A stretch of 29,417 nucleotides of DNA, taken from assembly GCA_000434475.1 (NCBI GenBank), contig FR879576.1, forward strand, positions 4,544 through 33,960. Direction: 5' to 3'. A program made the position numbers and the translations under genes. The stretch comes from Dialister sp. CAG:486. Lineage in GTDB: Bacteria; Bacillota; Negativicutes; Veillonellales; Dialisteraceae. Shown in pieces: positions 1,571 to 22,084 of the stretch (position 1 is the first letter of the stretch; each line of letters begins with the position of its first letter). The notes beneath the pieces are model-generated. The model had not been told where the DNA came from. It worked only from the letters and a program-made list of their open reading frames with translations, and did no database searches.

Positions 1571-1734
1571 ATAAATTCAGAGGATCTGTTTCCCGGATCG
1601 TAACAGGAATGAGCGGCTAGTGACTACTGATTTGAATACCGCTTTCAGGCATCGCCCATATATATGCGCGGCACAGCCGCCACCACCATCCCTAATCCCT
1701 AGTCACCAGTCACTAGTCACTCATTCCGGACAGC
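1571..1734. other. Non-coding gap with repeat modules
   Basis: I see no gene here. The stretch holds a block GCGCGGCACAGCCGCCACC (about 1666-1684) and a block of CCCTAATCCCTAGTCACC type (about 1689-1718). Both recur in the gaps near 13000-13215, 16440-16490, 22030-22080 and 24100-24150. Confidence 0.6.
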
Positions 1735-2101
1735 AAAAAACATCCGGGGAACGCTTTCTGCCTTTACCCAAATACAGGCGGGACACGGAATCGGCGCCGG
1801 TGTGGTCAAATGTACCAAAGTACGGACGTCCTGGCTGTCGTCGGTGCTCGGCCTCGCAGGGGGCAGGGAAGCGTGGAAAGCATGGATTTCCCGGATATTT
1901 TTTTGTTTGTCTTACATGTTCAGCCTTAGACAGGTGGGGGAAAAAGACTGACATTTCCGTGCCCTGTCCGATGAGCCGGAGCGCAAAGCAAGATCTTCCT
2001 TCCGTAAGGCTGCTCTCTGTCGTATTTCTTAGCGCTAATGAATTCTGGAAATCAGAGAACAGCCGCGAAAAGGTGTACACACGATGCGCCCTTGGCTTCA
2101 T
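1735..2101 (-). ncRNA. Candidate structured non-coding RNA (unidentified)
   Basis: A near-consensus promoter (2108-2136, minus) points into about 367 nt with no convincing reading frame. Read on the minus strand it can form: a 12-bp helix (2053-2064 with 2008-2019, one U.G wobble); an enclosing 7-bp helix (2085-2091 with 1979-1985, one G.U); a possible H-type pseudoknot (1963-1968 with 1929-1934, crossed by 1946-1951 with 1920-1925); and a 3' domain closed by 1888-1896 with 1742-1751, containing ACGCUU/AAGCGU and CUGCC/GGCAG. A run of six U follows at 1740-1735. Two of the wobbles become A-C mismatches on the other strand, which favours minus transcription. I looked for RNase P, tmRNA, SRP and 6S hallmarks and saw none. 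The helices were found by eye and not by a folding program. Confidence 0.5.
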
Positions 2102-2107
2102 GTCTGT

Positions 2108-2136
2108 ATTGTATACCTTCTTTATGAAAATTGCAA
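2108..2136 (-). promoter_or_regulatory. Near-consensus sigma-70 promoter, minus strand
   Basis: On the minus strand, -35 TTGCAA (2136-2131), a 17-bp spacer and -10 TACAAT (2113-2108), with transcription expected to begin near 2101. It does not precede any recognisable protein gene, which is the main reason to suspect an RNA gene at 1735-2101. Confidence 0.65.
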
Positions 2137-2440
2137 GTCTATGTCTTACGAGCAGTTCACAAGAAATGGTGGATCACTAAAATCTATCAAGGAACGAGCG
2201 CATATATATAGAATCATCCGTCATCCACGAGCTCTTTTATTCACATGGCGGATTATGTCGTGATAAGGAGATGTTGGCAGATCAGTCAGTGAGATAGCAT
2301 TTCTTATTTTTGCTGAGAAAATGAGATGATCGGGGAACCCATTGCGGATAGCCGCCCTTTTAGGGGAAATACACCTTATCATATGAAAATTAGAAACAAG
2401 AGATACAAGGTTAACAAAAATAAAATTAAATTAAAAAATA
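2137..2440. other. Non-coding, AT-rich gap upstream of the receptor gene
   Basis: No credible reading frame. It becomes strongly AT-rich from about 2380 to 2460, as expected upstream of a promoter for the receptor gene. No clear Fur-type palindrome was found. Confidence 0.5.
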
Positions 2441-2598
2441 TTGGACAAAATAAGTAGTTTATGATAGTCTCTTAGAAGGTCATCACTGATCAGGGAATAG
2501 GTGATGAGGATTTTCATCTTTGCCGTGGAAACTCGGACACACTGGCTCTTGATGGAGAACGTTTTCTTCCCGCTCATTTTGGAAAGAGGAGAATGTTT
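2441..2598 (+). promoter_or_regulatory. Promoter region and leader of the TonB receptor gene
   Basis: A possible -35 TTGGAC (2441-2446) precedes an imperfect -10 (TGATAG or ATAGTC near 2462-2469). The leader after about 2470 contains two mutually exclusive pairings: TCATCAC (2480-2486) with GTGATGA (2501-2507), and GATGA (2503-2507) with TCATC (2514-2518). GAGGAG near 2586-2591 is the ribosome binding site and decides the start at 2599. I could not match the leader to a cobalamin or other known riboswitch. Confidence 0.3.
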
Positions 2599-4737
2599 AT
2601 GAGAAAAGGAATGTATAAGATGTTGGCTGCTGCCCTCATGCTCACAATTTCGGGGGGGGTAGTAGGTAGTGCTGCTGATACTGTACTGGATACAGTGTAT
2701 GTAAATGCAGATAGAGATAAGGCGGAAGATACTGTCGGTACACTTCCAGGCGGATTCATCAAAGAAGAACCAAGCGTTGGACTGTTAGGGCATCAGGATG
2801 TAATGGATGCCCCTTTTGCGGTGTCTGAAGTCAGTCAGAAGACGATCAAAGCTTTTGCGTCTCCTGTGAACGGTGTCAACGAAGCTCTTGCGCTGAACCC
2901 TTCTGTCACGATTCAGTCTGGGAGCTTGTATCAGGATATTGCGATTCGTGGATTCAGAACGAATGGTCATAGACAGTACGTAAATGGTATTCCAGGCCTT
3001 CTCTGTCAGGAAAATATTCCATACTACTGGGTAGATAGCGTCAGTGTGGTTTCCGGTCCGAATATCGGCGTCCGTGGTACAGGTCTGAGTGAAGCTATCG
3101 GTGGTGTCGTTGATTATACCTCCAAGAAAGCAGTAACCAATGCCACCGATCTGAAACTGGCGTATCGTGGCGGCAGTTCTTTTGAAGAAGGCGTTGATTA
3201 TCAGACGCGTCTTGGCAGCGATAAGAAATGGGGCGTTCGCGTTACTACGAATAACATTCATGGGGATACTGCAATCGATAACGAAAAGCTGGAACAGCAG
3301 AATATTTTCGTCAATATCGATCACAAAGCAGAGCGCTCAAAGACAAATTTCCTCTTTGGATATAATCATACCAAACATTATGGTGGTCCGTATGGGGTTA
3401 GCTTTGATTTTAAGACGGTAACCGATCTTCCTTCTGCGCCCAAGGGAAGCAACGGATTGAAACCTGATTGGTCTTATAATGCATATGAGAACTATATCAT
3501 GGCGTTCAACCATGAACAGAAGTTGTCTGAACATGTGACCGGTTTCGTGAATGCTGGGTATCATAAGGAAAACTGGTATGGCTTTATTGACGGAAGTCCG
3601 AATGTTTTAAATAATAATGGTGACTACCAAATTAAAATGTCTAACCTTCCGCTGTTCCTTGTGAAAACTTACTTAGGAATGGGCATCAAAGGGGATTTCA
3701 ACATTGGCAAAGTAAAAAATGAATACATGATCGGTGTGGATAAGAGTTGGGAAACCTACGACATTGACAACGGAAATCCTAACTATAAGTGGTCGGGACA
3801 TGGTAACATCTACCAGACCAACAGCTGGGCAAATCCGGGCGATGCACACTGGATTCCACTTCATTCTGATACCACACAGATGGAAGGCTGGCATGTTGTA
3901 GATACTCTGAAGGCACTGGATGATAAGCTACAGGTGACACTTGGCGTTCACGGTCACAGGGCCACAGTAAATCAGGTAGGAGCAACATCTCTGAAAAAGT
4001 CGGATGCCATTACTCCGACCTATGCGATTTCCTATAAATTTACGCCAGATTTCATGATGTATGCTGACCATACGGAAAGCTTCGGGATGGGCGCACGCGT
4101 CTCGACTGATCCTTCATTCAATTATGTCAATAAAGGTAAAATGCTTGATCCGGCCAAGACGAAGCAGAATGAAGTGGGCTTCAAAGTAAAGACTGGTAAA
4201 TTCCTGAACACACTGGCATACTTTGATATCAAACAGGCGAATGCAATTGACGTAAAACTGGCGAATGGCAGACTGCTCCGCGCACTGGATGGAGAGCAGG
4301 AAAATAACGGTTTTGAATGGGCCTTCACTGGAAACATCAATGACAGATGGGATCTCATCGGTGGCGCTATGTATATCGATGTCAAACAGACAAAGACGAA
4401 AAATGGAGCTAATGATGGTAAGCCGGTAGACGGCATCCCGCACTGGACGGCAAATGTCGGCGCGATTTATCATCCAAATAGCCAGTGGTCTATTATTGGA
4501 CGTGGCAATTACATTGGAACAGCGAAGATCAATGGGGATACGGTCAAAGTACCGTCTTCCTTCGTGTTTGATCTGGGTGCAACCTATGATACCACTTTTG
4601 GCAAGACGCCAGTGACTTTACAGGCGATGCTTTACAATGTAGCAGGAAAAGATTACTGGATTCCAAGCGGAAGCTCCAGCAGCTTGACTGTCGGCGGACC
4701 ACGCACCTTCGTATTCTCCGCTAATTTCCGTTTCTAA
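2599..4737 (+). CDS. TonB-dependent outer-membrane receptor (siderophore type)
   Basis: Outer-membrane beta-barrel that imports a scarce ligand (ferric siderophore, haem or corrinoid) using TonB energy; 712 aa. A signal peptide (MRKGMYKML, hydrophobic core, likely cut after Ala25-Ala26) is followed by a TonB-box-like DTVYV (31-35). The plug domain shows MDAPFAVSEVSQKTI, ALNPSV, IAIRGF, YVNGIPG and VVSGPN, the pattern of TonB-siderophore receptors. The rest is barrel and ends in the terminal Phe of FSANFRF, the usual assembly signal. The start at 2599 is preferred over 2593 because GAGGAG would overlap 2593. Codon use looks more AT-rich than in the ABC genes just downstream. The permease begins 19 bases after the stop with its own AAAGGAG, so receptor and ABC transporter probably form one operon. 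Confidence 0.93.
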   Translation: MRKGMYKMLAAALMLTISGGVVGSAADTVLDTVYVNADRDKAEDTVGTLPGGFIKEEPSVGLLGHQDVMDAPFAVSEVSQKTIKAFASPVNGVNEALALNPSVTIQSGSLYQDIAIRGFRTNGHRQYVNGIPGLLCQENIPYYWVDSVSVVSGPNIGVRGTGLSEAIGGVVDYTSKKAVTNATDLKLAYRGGSSFEEGVDYQTRLGSDKKWGVRVTTNNIHGDTAIDNEKLEQQNIFVNIDHKAERSKTNFLFGYNHTKHYGGPYGVSFDFKTVTDLPSAPKGSNGLKPDWSYNAYENYIMAFNHEQKLSEHVTGFVNAGYHKENWYGFIDGSPNVLNNNGDYQIKMSNLPLFLVKTYLGMGIKGDFNIGKVKNEYMIGVDKSWETYDIDNGNPNYKWSGHGNIYQTNSWANPGDAHWIPLHSDTTQMEGWHVVDTLKALDDKLQVTLGVHGHRATVNQVGATSLKKSDAITPTYAISYKFTPDFMMYADHTESFGMGARVSTDPSFNYVNKGKMLDPAKTKQNEVGFKVKTGKFLNTLAYFDIKQANAIDVKLANGRLLRALDGEQENNGFEWAFTGNINDRWDLIGGAMYIDVKQTKTKNGANDGKPVDGIPHWTANVGAIYHPNSQWSIIGRGNYIGTAKINGDTVKVPSSFVFDLGATYDTTFGKTPVTLQAMLYNVAGKDYWIPSGSSSSLTVGGPRTFVFSANFRF

Positions 4738-9071: not shown

Positions 9072-9469
9072 AGGATCCCGATTTCAAAAAAGAATGGGTT
9101 GAGAATGAAGCGCGCTATCAGCTGATGATGATGGTTCTTCGCGCACGGAATGAAGAACACTTGACGCATTTGAGCTGGCGGAGCGCACAGGGCTTCGGCA
9201 GTCTAGGGAAACACTGATTCAATCGTTGTTCGATTTTACTCTTGTATTTTCATGTAGCGCAAGGAAGAGCCCTCCTTAAATAGCGAGCTATTTAAGGAGG
9301 GCTCTGACGAAGCGTTGTATGAAAATATATGTGAAATCGAATTCTGCGATTGAATCAGCGTTTCCCTAATATCAGCCGCATTGAGAAAGGTCAGTCAATG
9401 CCTTCCATCGCTACACTTGCGAAGATCGCGCAGGGACTTGGAAAGCGGCTGGAAATCCGTTTTGTATAG
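9035..9469 (+). pseudogene. Xre/HTH antitoxin, broken by a deletion and a MITE insertion
   Basis: Type II antitoxin gene with an intact N-terminus (MDDFDRYLNEQMKDPDFKK..., AGGAGGAG at 9019-9026). One base is missing near 9168, where LTQ-FELAERTGLRQS would be expected: the frame switches but the residues ELAERTGLRQS are all encoded at about 9172-9204. Coding resumes after a 161-bp insertion (9206-9366) as NISRIEKGQSMPSIATLAKI...RLEIRFV with a stop at 9467-9469. Removing the insertion and one TA rejoins QS to NIS exactly. Two separate lesions show that the locus is dead, at least as a regulated toxin-antitoxin pair. Confidence 0.8.
9206..9366. mobile_element. 161-bp MITE-like hairpin element with TA target duplication
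   Basis: Terminal inverted repeats GGGAAACACTGATTCAATCG and, inverted, GGGAAACGCTGATTCAATCG. The two halves pair imperfectly along their whole length and meet in a perfect 18-bp stem with a 2-base loop (9267-9284 with 9287-9304). The element is flanked by TA at 9204-9205 and 9367-9368, and the interrupted antitoxin shows that only one TA was there before. TA duplication is typical of IS630/Tc1-mariner-type movement; the parent transposase is not in the window. No coding capacity. Confidence 0.8.
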
Positions 9470-9584: not shown

Positions 9585-12500
9585 TCAGAATTTCACTTTG
9601 AGCAGTCTTACGGCATAGAGGATACAGAGGATGGTGACGCCGGTATCTGCGAAGACGGCGACCCACATATTGGCATAGCCTAAGAGGCCCATGATCATGA
9701 CGGCGATCTTCACGATGAGAGCGAAGGCGACATTTTCCCAAGCGGTCTTGATGACTTTTCTGGCCACGCGGACGGCTTTGGAGATGGCGTCGACATTCGA
9801 ATTCAGGAAGACGACGTCAGCGGCTTCGATGGCAGCATCTGCGCCGCTGCCCATAGCGGCGCCTACATCAGCACCGGCGAGGACAGGAGCGTCATTGATG
9901 CCGTCGCCTACGAAGAGGACGGAGCCGATCTCTTTTCTGACTTTCTGCATTTCAGAGAGCTTGTCTTCCGGAAGGAGACCGGCGTGGATGTTCTCGATGC
10001 CGACGAGACTGCCAATGGCTTTTGCGCTCTTTTCATTATCCCCGGTCAGCATGACAGGGGTGATGTCGAGGGCTTTCAGGTCTTGGATGCCTTCGATGGT
10101 GTCGGACTTGATGGCATCGGAAATGGTGATGCGGCCAAGGAGGGTCTTGCCTTTGGCGACGTAGACGTCGGTGCCGACTTCTTTGTTTTCCGGAAGGGAT
10201 GGGACAGAGATGCCGGAAAGGGCGAGGAGCTTTTCATTTCCGATATAGATGTCTTCGCCGTTCTGTTTGGCTTTGACGCCGTGTCCGGCGATTTCCTGCA
10301 TGGAGGTGAGCTTGGGAAGAGAGAGACCTTTTTCATTCGCGCAGGTCACGATGGATTGGGCGATGGGGTGGGTGGAGTAGATCTCACCGGCAGCTGCGAG
10401 GGCAAGGATCTCGTCTTCGCTCTTGCCAGCGGTCTTCACGATGCTTCTGACTTTGAATTTTCCTTCGGTCAGAGTGCCGGTCTTATCGAGGACAGCGGCT
10501 TTGGTATTCGAGAGGGCTTCCATGACGGTGCCGCCCTTGAAGAGGATGCCTTCTTTCGATGCGGCACCGATGCCGGCAAAGAAGGAGAGCGGGACGGAGA
10601 TGACGAGCGCGCAGGGGCAGCTGATGACGAGGAAGGTGAGAGCGGTGTAGATGCATTTATCCCAGTCGGCGCCGAAGAGGAGCGGCGGGAGGACTGCGAC
10701 GGCGATCGCGACGAAGACGACGATCGGGGTGTACACGCGGGAGAAGCGGGTGATGAAACGGTCGATCTTTGGCTTGCTGGCGACGGCATTCTCGACGGAG
10801 TCGAGGATACGGGTGACCATGGATTCTGCGAGGACTTTTTCGACCTGGATGCGGATGGTGCCGGTCATATTGACGCAGCCGGAGTCTACGGGGTCGCCGA
10901 CGGCTGCGAGGACAGGCTTCGGTTCACCGGTGACGGCGGAGGTGTCGATCTGGGTCTCGCCTTCGGAAATGATGCCGTCAAGCGGGATGCGGTCGCCGGG
11001 GCGGATGAGAAGGATATCGCCGACTTCGGCTTCTTCTGCCGGGATGGTCTCGGTGCCGCTCGCGGTCACGCGCTGGACGACTTCCGGGCGCAGGTCGACG
11101 GCGTCCATGATCTGGTCGCGGCTGCGGTCGGCAGCGAGGTCCTGGAAGTATTCACCGATGCGATAGAAGAGCATGACACCGACGGCTTCCGGATATTCGT
11201 GGATCGCGAAGGCGCCGACGGTCGCAACGGTCATGAGGAAGGTCTCGTCGAAGAATTCCCCATGGGTGATGTTTTTGAGGGCGGTGTAGACGATGGGACC
11301 GCCTAAGATGAGGTAGGAGACGAAGAAGAAATAGTCTCCGATGGAGACAAGTCCTGCGAAGAGGCCTGCCGGCTGGTAGTGCATCAGCATGCCGATGACG
11401 AAGAGGAGGCCGCCGATGGTGAGCTGGCTTTTTTCGCTTTTCAGGCGTTCAAGGAAGGACGCTTCTTTTTTGGCCGCTGACTTTTTCTGTGCTTTGGTTG
11501 GGCGCTGTTTCTTTCGGATCTCGGTCGGACTTTCGACCTCGTTGCATTTCCTGGTCAGCTCGGGGATGAGGCTGTCCGGGTCTTTGGCGGTGAGTTTCAT
11601 CGTCTTGGTGGCGAAGGAGATCGAGGCAGAGAGGACGCCGGGCTGGCGGTTCACGAGCTTTTCGAGCTTGACGGCGCAGGCTGCACAGTCGAGGGTGGGG
11701 ATCTCATAGATCTCTGTCTTGAAATCGCCCTTGTCAGAGGGCGGTACGATGCCGATATTTTCATCGACGGTGCGGCAGACGGAGAGCAGCTGCGGGATGA
11801 GATTGTCCGGATTTTCTTTGGAAATGACGCGGAGCTCTTTCTTCGTGAAGGAGACCGAGGCGAAGAAGACGGATGGCATTTCGCGGATCTTCCCTTCCAT
11901 TTTCGCGGCGCATTCCATGCAGTCGAGGTGCTCCATGTGATAGAGGCCGCGTTTGTATTCCTTTCCTAAGAAATCGCACTGGCAGGAGGCAAGGTCTTTG
12001 CCGCAGTAGTCGCAGTCTTCTTCGTCGATGCAGTCATGGCAGTGACAGTCATTCTTGTGACCGTCATGATGGTGGACGCCCTTGTCATGGAAATGGCCGA
12101 AGGCGCGTCTTTCATCGATCGCGATGTCGGCTTCGCTCTCCATGACATCGATCTTATTGTCCTTGTATTTTGCCATTTCAGGGTCATTCGAGTGGTCATG
12201 GCTCTCTTCCGGGATCTCTTCGCAGCAGCCACAGCCGCAGCCATCATGCTCATGGTCATGCCCGCAGGCGCATCCGTGCTCGTGGGAGTGGCCTTCGTGG
12301 TCGTGGTCATGCCCGCAGCCGCATCCGTGCTCATGGGAGTGGCCTTCGTGGTCATGGTCATGCCCGCAGGTGCATCCGTGTTCATGGGAGTGGCCTTCGT
12401 GGTCATGGTCATGCCCGCAGGCGCATTCGTGCTCGTGGGAGTGGCCTTCGTGGCCATGGTCATGCCCGCAGGTGCATCCGTGTTCATGGGAGTGACCTTC

Positions 12501-12740
12501 GTGGTCATGGTCATGCTCGCAGCCGCATTCATGCTCATGGGAGTGACCTTCGTGGTCATGCCCGCAGCCGCATTCGTGTTCATGGGAGTGGCTTTCGTGG
12601 TCATGCCCGCAGCCGCAGCTGTGATTTTCTTCATCTTCCTCGTGGTGTGCATGCTCTTCGGTGCGATGGACGGATTCCTGTGCCTCATGGCAATGGCCGC
12701 ATCCGCAGTGATGTACATGCTTTTCATCGTGCTTTTCCAT
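9585..12740 (-). CDS. zntA: Zn/Cd-type P1B ATPase with His/Cys-rich repeat tail
   Basis: Inner-membrane metal-exporting ATPase, 1051 aa (usual family size about 650-800). The first 250 residues are extremely rich in His, Cys, Asp and Glu and hold tandem CGCGHDHxxGHSHEHx units (42-156). Two HMA metal-binding domains follow, with CMEC (274-277) and CAAC (352-355). The catalytic core has TGEPKPV (about 600), the CPC membrane motif (708-710), phosphorylated Asp752 in DKTGTLTEG, HPIAQS, LTGDNEKSA and GDGINDAP (about 940). A Lys in the penultimate helix and DTG in the last one, with CPC, mark the Zn/Cd/Pb subgroup and not the copper one. AAGGAG lies 9-14 bases before the start. It stands alone, with no adjacent metalloregulator. 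Confidence 0.93.
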   Translation of the reverse strand: MEKHDEKHVHHCGCGHCHEAQESVHRTEEHAHHEEDEENHSCGCGHDHESHSHEHECGCGHDHEGHSHEHECGCEHDHDHEGHSHEHGCTCGHDHGHEGHSHEHECACGHDHDHEGHSHEHGCTCGHDHDHEGHSHEHGCGCGHDHDHEGHSHEHGCACGHDHEHDGCGCGCCEEIPEESHDHSNDPEMAKYKDNKIDVMESEADIAIDERRAFGHFHDKGVHHHDGHKNDCHCHDCIDEEDCDYCGKDLASCQCDFLGKEYKRGLYHMEHLDCMECAAKMEGKIREMPSVFFASVSFTKKELRVISKENPDNLIPQLLSVCRTVDENIGIVPPSDKGDFKTEIYEIPTLDCAACAVKLEKLVNRQPGVLSASISFATKTMKLTAKDPDSLIPELTRKCNEVESPTEIRKKQRPTKAQKKSAAKKEASFLERLKSEKSQLTIGGLLFVIGMLMHYQPAGLFAGLVSIGDYFFFVSYLILGGPIVYTALKNITHGEFFDETFLMTVATVGAFAIHEYPEAVGVMLFYRIGEYFQDLAADRSRDQIMDAVDLRPEVVQRVTASGTETIPAEEAEVGDILLIRPGDRIPLDGIISEGETQIDTSAVTGEPKPVLAAVGDPVDSGCVNMTGTIRIQVEKVLAESMVTRILDSVENAVASKPKIDRFITRFSRVYTPIVVFVAIAVAVLPPLLFGADWDKCIYTALTFLVISCPCALVISVPLSFFAGIGAASKEGILFKGGTVMEALSNTKAAVLDKTGTLTEGKFKVRSIVKTAGKSEDEILALAAAGEIYSTHPIAQSIVTCANEKGLSLPKLTSMQEIAGHGVKAKQNGEDIYIGNEKLLALSGISVPSLPENKEVGTDVYVAKGKTLLGRITISDAIKSDTIEGIQDLKALDITPVMLTGDNEKSAKAIGSLVGIENIHAGLLPEDKLSEMQKVRKEIGSVLFVGDGINDAPVLAGADVGAAMGSGADAAIEAADVVFLNSNVDAISKAVRVARKVIKTAWENVAFALIVKIAVMIMGLLGYANMWVAVFADTGVTILCILYAVRLLKVKF
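12273..12617 (-). repeat. In-gene tandem repeats coding the His-rich tail
   Basis: Seven head-to-tail coding units, two of 45 bp followed by five of 51 bp, with an eighth partial unit to about 12222. Each encodes C-x-C-G-H-D-H-(D/G-H)-E-G-H-S-H-E-H-x. The near-identity of neighbouring DNA units implies recent slippage or unequal exchange. The opposite strand stays open because the unit length is a multiple of three, which creates false reading frames there. Confidence 0.9.
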
Positions 12741-12965: not shown

Positions 12966-13122
12966 GGCGGTGCGGCGCATAAAAAGCAGAAGCGCCGCGG
13001 AGTATAAATGAGACAATGTTTGAAAGTGAGTGGGGAGCGGGTTTCCCGTTTGGGAGTTCCAAACATCGTCCGCCTGACCGCGAATGACAAAGATTTCTCG
13101 CTTACGCTCGAAATGACGATAC
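12966..13122 (-). repeat. Copy B of the interspersed modular repeat, inverted
   Basis: Reverse-oriented relative to copies C and D. In the minus direction it reads CGTATCGTCATTTCGAGCG, then the AAGCGAGAAATCT core with one extra T, a GCGG..GGA block, CCAAACGGGAA, and ends with ACTCCGCGGCGCTTCTG and TATGCGCCGCACC. It aligns with 16327-16490 over its whole length. The flank at about 13160-13215 holds CCCTAATCCCCAATCCCTAG and CAGTCACTAGTCACCAGTCA blocks. Confidence 0.8.
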
Positions 13123-13246
13123 GGGGGAGTCTTAAGTCTCCTAGTCTCCAGCTGCTCGAGATCCCTAATCCCCAATCCCTAGATACTAGTCCCTCGCTAT
13201 CAGTCACTAGTCACCAGTCACCTCTAATTGACCCGTAGCTTTTTTA

Positions 13247-14880: not shown

Positions 14881-15010
14881 AAAATAGAATTTTTATGTAC
14901 AGATGGAAAGCGTGAGAGGCTCCGGGAGAGAGCGAGGAATACGGTATTCTTGTATCGCAGCCGGGCTCGCTCTTGCGCACCTTCCTTCTATTTCTCAAAC
15001 GAGGTACTCC

Positions 15011-16297
15011 ATGTTTATCGATAGAGCAAAGATTATTGTAGTCTCCGGTGCGGGCGGGGACGGGATGGTTTCCTTCCGCCGTGAAAAGTATGTACCGCGC
15101 GGCGGCCCGTCGGGCGGTGATGGCGGCAAGGGCGGCTCGGTCTTCATCAAAGCGAATAGCGACCTAAATACGCTGATCAATTTCCGCCGTCATAGAAAAT
15201 TCGCAGCCAAAGCCGGGGCCAACGGCGGCGCCAAAGAGATGTTCGGCAAAAATGCAGAGGACGTCTTCGTCGAGGTGCCGCTCGGAACGATGGTCTATGA
15301 CAATAAGACCGGCGAACTTCTGGCGGATATGACGCAGAATGGACAGGAAGCCCTCATCGTCAAAGGCGGGCATGGCGGCCGCGGAAATTCCCATTTCGCG
15401 ACATCGGCTGTCCGTGCGCCTCTTTATGCGGAAAAAGGCGAGCCGGGTGAAGAAAAGGAGCTGCGCCTCGAGCTGAAGGTGCTGGCGGATGTCGGTCTTC
15501 TGGGATTCCCGAGCGTAGGGAAATCCTCTCTCATCCGCAAGGTATCCGGTGCGAAGCCGGAAGTGGCGGCGTACCATTTCACGACGCTGAATCCGATCCT
15601 CGGTGTGGTGAATCTGGACTATGAGAGAAGCTTCGTCATGGCAGATATCCCGGGCCTGATCGAAGGCGCAAGTCAGGGGACCGGTCTTGGGGACGAATTT
15701 CTCCGCCATGTAGAGCGTACGAAGGTCCTCATCCATGTGCTTGATGCGGCGGGCAGCGAAGGCCGCGATCCATTGCATGATTTCCATATCATTAACAATG
15801 AGCTCGAGCTGTACAGCCCGGAGCTTCGTCAGAAGAAGCAGATCGTCGCAGCGAATAAGACCGATCTCATCGATGACCCGAAGAAGCTGGAAGAGTTGAA
15901 AAAGGCCATCGAGAAGGAAGGCTATGACTTCTATCCCATCTGCACGCTTTCCGGAGAAGGCACTCGTCCGCTCATGGAAGCCGTGTGGAAGCTTCTGCAG
16001 GAGATCCCCGATGTATCCTTCGAATCTCCGGAAAAGGCCATTGTATATGATGCGAACAAGCAGGAATTCGAGATCGAGTGCAAGAATGATGTGTACTATA
16101 TCAAGGGCAAGCGCGTGGAAAAGCTGGTCGGCATGACCGACTTCGAGGACTATGTCTCCCTGCGCCGCTTCGACAGAGCTTGGAGATTCATGGGCCTTGA
16201 CAAGCTCCTCCGCAAGGCAGGCTGTCAAGAAGGCGATACGGTCAATCTGTACGGCGTAGAATTCACCTGGTCGGAGAATCATAGTGAAGAGGAATAG
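15011..16297 (+). CDS. obgE: Obg-family GTPase
   Basis: Essential GTPase associated with 50S subunit maturation and stress signalling, 428 aa. The N-terminal glycine-rich Obg fold (about 1-158) includes FRREKYVPRGGPSGGDGGKGG. The G domain shows GFPSVGKSSL (G1, about 167), a threonine-containing FTTLNPILG (G2), ADIPGLIEGA (G3, about 212), NKTDLID (G4, about 283) and the usual C-terminal OCT domain (about 350-428), as in Gram-positive Obg. The start at 15011 is chosen because it begins the Obg fold and has GAGGT at 15001-15005; the frame is open upstream to 14903 without homology. First gene of a core block also containing yhbY. Confidence 0.96.
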   Translation: MFIDRAKIIVVSGAGGDGMVSFRREKYVPRGGPSGGDGGKGGSVFIKANSDLNTLINFRRHRKFAAKAGANGGAKEMFGKNAEDVFVEVPLGTMVYDNKTGELLADMTQNGQEALIVKGGHGGRGNSHFATSAVRAPLYAEKGEPGEEKELRLELKVLADVGLLGFPSVGKSSLIRKVSGAKPEVAAYHFTTLNPILGVVNLDYERSFVMADIPGLIEGASQGTGLGDEFLRHVERTKVLIHVLDAAGSEGRDPLHDFHIINNELELYSPELRQKKQIVAANKTDLIDDPKKLEELKKAIEKEGYDFYPICTLSGEGTRPLMEAVWKLLQEIPDVSFESPEKAIVYDANKQEFEIECKNDVYYIKGKRVEKLVGMTDFEDYVSLRRFDRAWRFMGLDKLLRKAGCQEGDTVNLYGVEFTWSENHSEEE

Positions 16298-16326
16298 CCG
16301 GTGACGGGGAGACTAGGAGACATCAG

Positions 16327-16490
16327 CCTCTCGTATCGTCATTTCGAGCGAAGCGAGAAATCTTTGTCATTTGCGGCCGAGTGGTTGATGTGTGGAAACC
16401 CCAAACGGGAAGCCTGTCATCAAGAGACCTTCGGGCATCGTCGCCATCTATACTCCGCGGCGCTTCTGATTTTTATGCGCCGCACCAGCC
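16327..16490 (+). repeat. Copy C of the interspersed modular repeat
   Basis: Fullest copy of the repeat: CTCTCGTATCGTCATTTCGA, the AGCGAAGCGAGAAATCT core (core 16339-16363), AAACGGGAAGCC, ACTCCGCGGCGCTTCTG and TATGCGCCGCACC. The left flank holds GACTAGGAGACATCAG, also found near 21913. It fills most of the 320-base gap between obgE and yhbY; the remainder (16491-16600) is a GAACCC and CGCAATCAAAAGGCG block like the one at 77-120. I see no gene in this gap. Confidence 0.85.
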
Positions 16491-21850: not shown

Positions 21851-21927
21851 TCATTTTGAGTAGCTAGGGATTAGTAGTTAGGGATTAGAGTTCTCGAGTA
21901 ACTCGTGACTGGTAGACATCAGACTCT

Positions 21928-22058
21928 CTCGTATCGTCATTTCGAGCGGAGCGAGAAATCTGTTTCGTTCGCGGTCAAACGGACGATGATAGGAAGGCCG
22001 AAACGGGAAATCTGGGATCAAGCCCCTCATATATTCGCGGCGAAGCCGCCACCCTAAT
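21928..22058 (+). repeat. Copy D of the interspersed modular repeat
   Basis: CTCGTATCGTCATTTCGAGC, then the core with one change (GGA for GAA; 21937-21961), a TTCGCGGTCAAACGGACGATG block shared with copy B, CGAAACGGGAA and a terminal GCGGCGAAGCCGCCACC. The flanks hold TAGGGATTAG (about 21866-21895) and CTAATCCCTGGTCACCAGTC (about 22061-22080). It occupies nearly all of the 315-base gap between cvfB and rqcH; no gene is seen there. Confidence 0.85.
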
Positions 22059-22084
22059 TCCTAATCCCTGGTCACCAGTCACCA

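What the first reader, a model, noticed from the sequence alone, without database searches (positions are those of the whole stretch)
1735..2136. Minus-strand promoter driving a large, highly structured RNA of unknown class
Seen: TTGCAA-17-TACAAT on the minus strand, about 367 nt with no gene-like frame, then a U6 tract right after a closing helix. Long-range helices by eye: 12 bp (2053-2064/2008-2019), 7 bp (2085-2091/1979-1985), a possible pseudoknot (1963-1968/1929-1934 crossed by 1946-1951/1920-1925), and a 3' domain (1888-1896/1742-1751 plus ACGCUU/AAGCGU and CUGCC/GGCAG). Wobble pairs in two helices fit only minus transcription. Known: hallmarks of RNase P (GAGGAAAGTCC), tmRNA (tRNA-like ends), SRP and 6S were looked for and not found. 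Inference: a standalone structured RNA, possibly lineage-specific, next to an iron-uptake operon.
Basis: partly seen in the sequence, partly recalled or inferred. Interest (0 to 1): 0.75.

Follow-up and report, generated by a model that had tools for sequence, protein, structure and literature searches.

The report
New structured RNA gene in Dialister
A stretch between two genes of a gut Dialister-like bacterium looks like a gene whose product is a folded RNA of about 367 bases with its own start and stop signals, and it matches no catalogued RNA family.

Summary
The finding holds up in its main points. On the minus strand, 1735-2136 carries a sigma-70-type promoter, about 367 nt that fold better than shuffles (z -2.7), and a T6 end after a closing helix. 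No Rfam family matches. 'No gene-like frame' is wrong: a 126-aa minus ORF and a 186-aa plus ORF cover it. Protein searches with these ORFs gave 206 protein records (67 and 139). Of the 187 that could be examined, 153 carry one- or two-base indels inside the unit, so neither ORF is a gene. Bases read back from those translations show a conserved unit from the -35 box to the T6 tract (5-8% of codons differ inside, 24-35% in the flanks). No convincing match occurs in 380 Negativicutes genomes, so the RNA is narrow. At least two downstream contexts exist. Best reading: a standalone structured noncoding RNA of a new family. Its function is inferred, not shown. Covariation does not settle the strand, and no transcript was seen.

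The parts
2108..2136 (-). sigma-70-type promoter: TTGCAA (2136-2131), 17-nt spacer, TACAAT (2113-2108)
   Evidence: conserved in copies
1735..2101 (-). structured noncoding RNA, about 367 nt; +1 near 2101 and 3' end at T6 (1740-1735) inferred
   Evidence: fold z -2.71; conserved unit; indels exclude a protein
1971..2101 (-). 5' domain: long hairpin with the 12-bp helix 2053-2064/2008-2019 and the 7-bp helix 2085-2091/1979-1985
   Evidence: few informative cells, no pair with changes on both sides
2029..2047 (-). 19-nt apical loop holding the 10-nt palindrome UUAGCGCUAA (2038-2029), possible kissing-loop dimer site
   Evidence: bases nearly invariant in copies
1920..1969 (-). H-type pseudoknot: 1963-1969/1928-1934 crossed by 1944-1951/1920-1927
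   Evidence: U1947-G1924 becomes U-A in 5 records
1904..1919 (-). A-rich single-stranded linker
1735..1903 (-). 3' domain: long helix closed by 1890-1903/1735-1748, ending in T6
1805..1827 (-). tip of the 3' domain with two pairs changed on both sides (1825-1807, 1822-1813)
1721..2101 (-). spurious 126-aa ORF over the RNA
1620..2180 (+). spurious 186-aa ORF antisense to the RNA

Best explanation
A standalone noncoding RNA gene. RNA polymerase starts at the conserved promoter (2136-2108, minus) and makes an RNA of about 367 nt ending at the U6 tract at 1735. The RNA itself is the product. It folds into a 5' hairpin domain, an H-type pseudoknot, an A-rich linker and a long 3' helix domain. Supported by sequence comparison: the conserved unit, its edges, its non-coding nature and parts of the fold. 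Inferred: that it is transcribed, and on which strand (promoter, T6 end, fold scores). How it acts is a further inference, about 0.4 likely: as a folded scaffold or protein-binding RNA in the manner of OLE or raiA RNA rather than as an antisense regulator, because conservation covers the whole length and the pseudoknot rather than one short seed.
For: The conserved unit matches the predicted gene: 5-8% of codons differ inside 1735-2136 against 24-35% outside. Fold z is -2.71 on the minus and -0.87 on the plus strand. Determined bases form standard pairs in 99.03% of 4530 cells, with 3 pairs and 40 cells changed on both sides; six slid controls give 38-49%, at most 1 pair and 2 cells. Consensus fold of 51 imputed rows -117.2 kcal/mol, against -94.6 +/- 5.6 for 60 column shuffles and -111.7 for the plus strand. 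44 of 67 and 109 of 120 records carry frame-breaking indels inside the unit. Two downstream contexts diverge within a few bases of the T6 tract.
Against: No transcript data. Homologue bases were inferred from predicted proteins, so synonymous positions are unseen, and related records inflate the counts. The plus-strand fold does nearly as well (98.41% of 5145 cells, 2 pairs and 36 cells changed on both sides). The 5' domain has few informative cells and no such pair. Some pairs break: 2061-2011 is non-standard in 26 rows, 6 of them with both bases determined; a two-base deletion at 2088-2089 in the 7-bp helix occurs in 31 of 120 plus-strand records. Variable sites are not rarer in paired than in unpaired positions (28 of 187 against 14 of 119). 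No homologue found in any named genome.
Confidence: 0.8

Rival explanations
1. An iron-linked antisense sRNA: the RNA is made near the TonB/FecCD operon and base-pairs with its mRNA or other iron-uptake mRNAs through an exposed loop such as the C-rich stretch of the pseudoknot.
For: It lies just upstream of and divergent from the TonB receptor/FecCD/ABC operon; a C-rich loop (UUUCCCCCA) is present. Homology in some records runs on toward the operon, to 2436 in one (P0160).
Against: No target or Fur-site search was run; conservation is spread over the whole RNA; other downstream contexts exist; the TonB receptor found no match in 12 of 12 family genomes.
Confidence: 0.2
2. A plus-strand RNA or a two-way terminator/DNA element: the conserved inverted repeats matter as DNA or in a plus-strand transcript.
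For: The plus-strand fold scores nearly as well on covariation, and the closing helix of the 3' domain has A/T tracts on both sides.
Against: The minus fold is better against shuffles; the conserved edge at the -35 box of a minus promoter is not explained.
Confidence: 0.1
3. A dispersed non-autonomous repeat (MITE-like) whose fold is a by-product of mobility.
For: More than one downstream context; RNA alleles occur with both flanks; the window holds other dispersed repeats.
Against: Only one copy in 29 kb; no empty site: 11 of 11 records with the second flank carry the RNA; a promoter is conserved with the unit. Terminal inverted repeats were not sought at the unit's ends as such.
Confidence: 0.1
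4. A real small protein is encoded on either strand.
For: ORFs of 126 and 186 aa with many database relatives.
Against: 153 of 187 records have one- or two-base indels inside the unit; no Pfam match for either ORF.
Confidence: 0.02

Closest known systems
Ornate standalone bacterial RNAs: OLE, ROOL, GOLLD, raiA/ModT
   Same: Noncoding RNA with long helices and pseudoknot-type contacts (partly recalled); symmetric palindromic kissing loops are part of the OLE, ROOL and GOLLD homo-oligomers (PMC12286853, passages seen).
   Different: No match to any Rfam model. Narrow: no convincing match in 380 Negativicutes genomes, whereas raiA is reported in more than 2,500 species (PMC11706538, start of abstract in the listing). 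Oligomerisation untested.
Housekeeping RNAs: RNase P RNA, tmRNA, 6S RNA, SRP RNA
   Same: tmRNA and RNase P RNA have a similar length and contain pseudoknots (recalled).
   Different: No Rfam model gives a match to the RNA.
Multi-copy regulatory sRNAs such as Listeria LhrC (PMC4132741, listing only)
   Same: Standalone RNA with its own promoter, found in more than one context.
   Different: LhrC members are shorter (recalled). Copy number per genome and targets of this RNA are unknown.

Membership tests
Any Rfam 15 family (RNase P, tmRNA, 6S, SRP, OLE, ROOL, GOLLD, raiA; that these are among the 4227 models is recalled) | score at or above the family's gathering threshold | tested here: not met
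   0 matches in the window; at E up to 10 on 1400-2500 all 13 matches lie at 1416-1633, outside the RNA
Standalone structured noncoding RNA | no conserved reading frame | tested here: met
   44 of 67 minus-frame and 109 of 120 plus-frame records have one- or two-base indels inside the unit
Standalone structured noncoding RNA | fold more stable than shuffled sequence | tested here: met
   z -2.71, 0 of 100 shuffles as good
Standalone structured noncoding RNA | compensatory base changes in helices | tested here: met
   3 pairs, 40 cells, against at most 1 pair and 2 cells in six slid controls; bases inferred from translations; only in the 3' domain
Standalone structured noncoding RNA | own promoter and terminator | tested here: inconclusive
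   promoter-like site, conserved in copies; T6 end not scored as a terminator by the scan
Standalone structured noncoding RNA | observed transcript | not testable with these tools
   no RNA-seq available
Homo-oligomeric ornate RNA (OLE/ROOL/GOLLD-like) | self-complementary exposed loop | tested here: met
   UUAGCGCUAA in a 19-nt predicted loop; 37 of 2000 shuffled loops have a 10-nt palindrome, so modest
Homo-oligomeric ornate RNA (OLE/ROOL/GOLLD-like) | defined multimer in vitro or in cells | not testable with these tools
   needs native gel, mass photometry or cryo-EM
Iron-responsive antisense sRNA | target pairing and iron control | not tested
   no target or Fur-site search was run

The most novel reading that the evidence does not exclude
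A new class of ornate RNA restricted to a lineage of gut Dialister: an RNA with a pseudoknot core that dimerises through a palindromic 10-nt loop, is carried in more than one genomic context and kept alike by recombination, and works as an RNA or RNA-protein assembly rather than as an antisense regulator.
Probability: 0.2. Interest if true: 0.75.

Novelty: new variant of a known kind. Interest (0 to 1): 0.55.

Why it matters
If real, it is an uncatalogued, sizeable structured RNA, frequent enough in public sequence data to appear as 206 protein records in two searches, in a genus for which my paper searches found no RNA work. Gene callers read it as nameless proteins on both strands, so it pollutes protein databases. 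It also shows that translated records can be read back into bases to test an RNA structure when the DNA is not at hand.

Tried and rejected
Protein-coding reading: rejected because of indels among relatives. Known RNA: no Rfam match.

Phage or plasmid origin: no match in phages, plasmids, E. coli genomes or viral contigs (in one search, 213 stretches matched a pattern and none was confirmed).

Homologues in genomes: 0 of 6 genomes behind L001-L006, 0 of 6, 0 of 12 and 0 of 61 Veillonellales genomes by BLAST; overlapping sets. 1 of 380 Negativicutes genomes by covariance model of the 5' part, a 73-base match of 22.9 bits against 228.5 for the window copy; 1 of 380 by BLAST, 29 bases over an A-rich stretch at 90%. 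I judged both to be chance and did not look at them further. No genome known to carry the RNA was held, so these negatives have no positive control.

Empty-site test: 11 of 11 proteins matching the second downstream flank carry the RNA, all of them already known. Strand from covariation: not decided. TonB receptor as an anchor: 0 of 12 family genomes.

Papers: 0 papers hold Dialister, small RNA and Rfam together; 0 hold three of four Dialister/repeat terms. 'Dialister' has 0 occurrences in the main texts of PMC8040213, PMC6429828 and PMC8632094 (term searches and passages only; supplements not open to me). The listings (15 of 1,352; 2 of 2; 1 of 1) named no such RNA. The open-licence library lacks most subscription papers.

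Full report
WHAT IS THERE. The window belongs to a Dialister-like bacterium: the 464-aa protein at 14903-16297 gives 84, 83 and 79% identity to the three best of 12 genomes of the Dialister family set, and the HAD protein at 168-1349 gives 70-71% to three contigs titled Dialister. The finding lies between that HAD gene (plus) and a TonB receptor/FecCD/ABC operon (plus, from 2593). On the minus strand there is TTGCAA-17-TACAAT at 2136-2108, then about 367 nt, then T6 at 1740-1735. The minus strand folds at -123.1 kcal/mol against -106.2 +/- 6.24 for shuffles (z -2.71, 0 of 100 as good); the plus strand gives z -0.87 (15 of 100). The crossing pseudoknot helix extends to 8 bp (1944-1951/1920-1927).

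NOT A PROTEIN. I used them to find copies. The minus frame gave 67 protein records of 71 candidates; the plus frame gave 139 of 204, of which 120 were listed. None of the 187 listed has a name or a Pfam domain. One DNA copy may stand behind a record on each strand, so 206 records are not 206 copies. I aligned all 187 to the window DNA allowing frame changes. Inside 1735-2101, 44 of 67 minus and 109 of 120 plus records have one- or two-base indels, mostly in the A7/T7 run near 1895-1905, at 1935-1939 and at 2085-2089. So both ORFs are by-products of a conserved non-coding sequence.

THE CONSERVED UNIT. Mean fraction of aligned codons that differ from the window, plus-strand records: downstream flank 0.267 (66 rows), 3' domain 0.066 (102), linker 0.062 (119), pseudoknot 0.049 (120), 5' domain 0.049 (119), promoter 0.083 (118), upstream 2141-2177 0.241 (104), upstream 2178-2330 0.258 (16). 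Minus-strand records show the same shape (flanks 0.25-0.35 on 9, 8 and 2 rows; unit 0.05-0.07). The edges fall at the -35 box and at the T6 tract. The alignments are local, so flank divergence is probably understated.

STRUCTURE TEST. Bases were read back from amino acids. Counting only determined bases, 99.03% of 4530 cells of the minus fold are standard pairs and three pairs change on both sides (40 cells). Sliding the partners by 1-3 bases gives 38-49%, at most 1 pair and 2 cells. Determined counts: 1825-1807 U-A 33, C-G 24, U-G 6; 1822-1813 U-A 88, C-G 12, C-A 1; 1862-1768 C-G 38, U-A 4, U-G 1, C-A 1. With parsimony-filled bases, wobble-type changes that fit a minus RNA occur at 2068-2002, 2090-1980, 1882-1752, 1879-1755, 1857-1774 and 2087-1983, and U1947-G1924 of the pseudoknot becomes U-A in 5 records. 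Against: 2061-2011 is non-standard in 26 rows (6 with both bases determined); 1862-1768 reads C-A in 13 rows, 12 of them with an assumed C; several A-C mismatches occur in 2-5 rows each; a two-base deletion at 2088-2089 occurs in 31 of 120 plus records; many pairs of the 5' domain have few or no determined cells. The plus-strand fold does nearly as well on its own pairs (98.41% of 5145 cells; 2 pairs, 36 cells), so the strand rests on the promoter, the T6 end and the fold scores. Variable sites were not depleted in paired positions (28 of 187 against 14 of 119). The consensus fold of 51 imputed rows is -117.2, against -94.6 +/- 5.6 for 60 column shuffles, and -111.7 on the plus strand; its covariance term did not favour the real alignment over the shuffles.

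KNOWN OR NEW. No Rfam family matches. No match in 61 Veillonellales genomes and only two short matches, judged chance, in 380 Negativicutes genomes; none in phages, plasmids, E. coli or viral contigs. The carrier species is not known to be in the searched sets, so these negatives show only that the RNA is narrow. The paper searches found no description of it.

CONTEXTS AND COPIES. Most records that reach it share a downstream flank like the window's, part of which is a dispersed repeat (54 bases at 1660-1713 recur at 22029-22082, 85%). Fifteen minus records and one plus record have a second, unrelated flank that starts within a few bases of the T6 tract; P0188 may have a third. Translated RNA alleles such as RPYFGTFD and RSYFGTCN occur with both flanks. 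This fits either several loci kept alike by recombination or different strains; I cannot decide without the DNA. By-eye back-translation of the second flank suggests a hairpin with a T-rich run behind it, oriented for minus transcription; this was not computed.

HOW IT MAY WORK. Near-uniform conservation, the pseudoknot and the long helices argue for a folded RNA as the end product. A 19-nt apical loop holds the only 10-nt palindrome of the RNA (37 of 2000 shuffled loops have one; 73 of 2000 pair with themselves as strongly), a possible kissing-loop dimer site; such symmetric loops occur in OLE, ROOL and GOLLD (PMC12286853, passages). This is a suggestion, not a result. The iron-operon neighbour makes an iron-linked sRNA a fair rival.

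Noticed in passing
2652-2659: Run of eight G near the start of the TonB-dependent receptor gene (2593-4737); a possible slipped-strand (phase-variation) site.
   Followed up: no
12969-13149, 16308-16486, 21878-22010, 1404-1436, 1660-1713, 22029-22082: Dispersed intergenic repeats, about 80% alike or shorter and more alike, recurring several times in the window.
   Followed up: partly
12240-12623: Tandem repeat inside the N-terminal part of the P-type ATPase gene (9585-12740, minus); match offsets of about 102, 153 and 204 bases suggest a 51-base unit.
   Followed up: no
1520-1571: 24-bp, 96% complementary hairpin with A/T tracts on both sides, a likely two-way terminator behind the HAD gene.
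   Followed up: no
9204-9368: Long imperfect palindrome of 165 bases, 78% identical to its own reverse complement.
   Followed up: no
related record P0024: A translated copy that follows the RNA to about 1808 and then runs into other sequence, apparently an internal deletion.
   Followed up: partly
records P0077/P0111 and P0105/P0133: Pairs of different copies list exactly the same longest-contig length and source (3469, ena; 12104, lgn), a hint that one contig can hold two copies; other equal lengths among short contigs look like chance.
   Followed up: no
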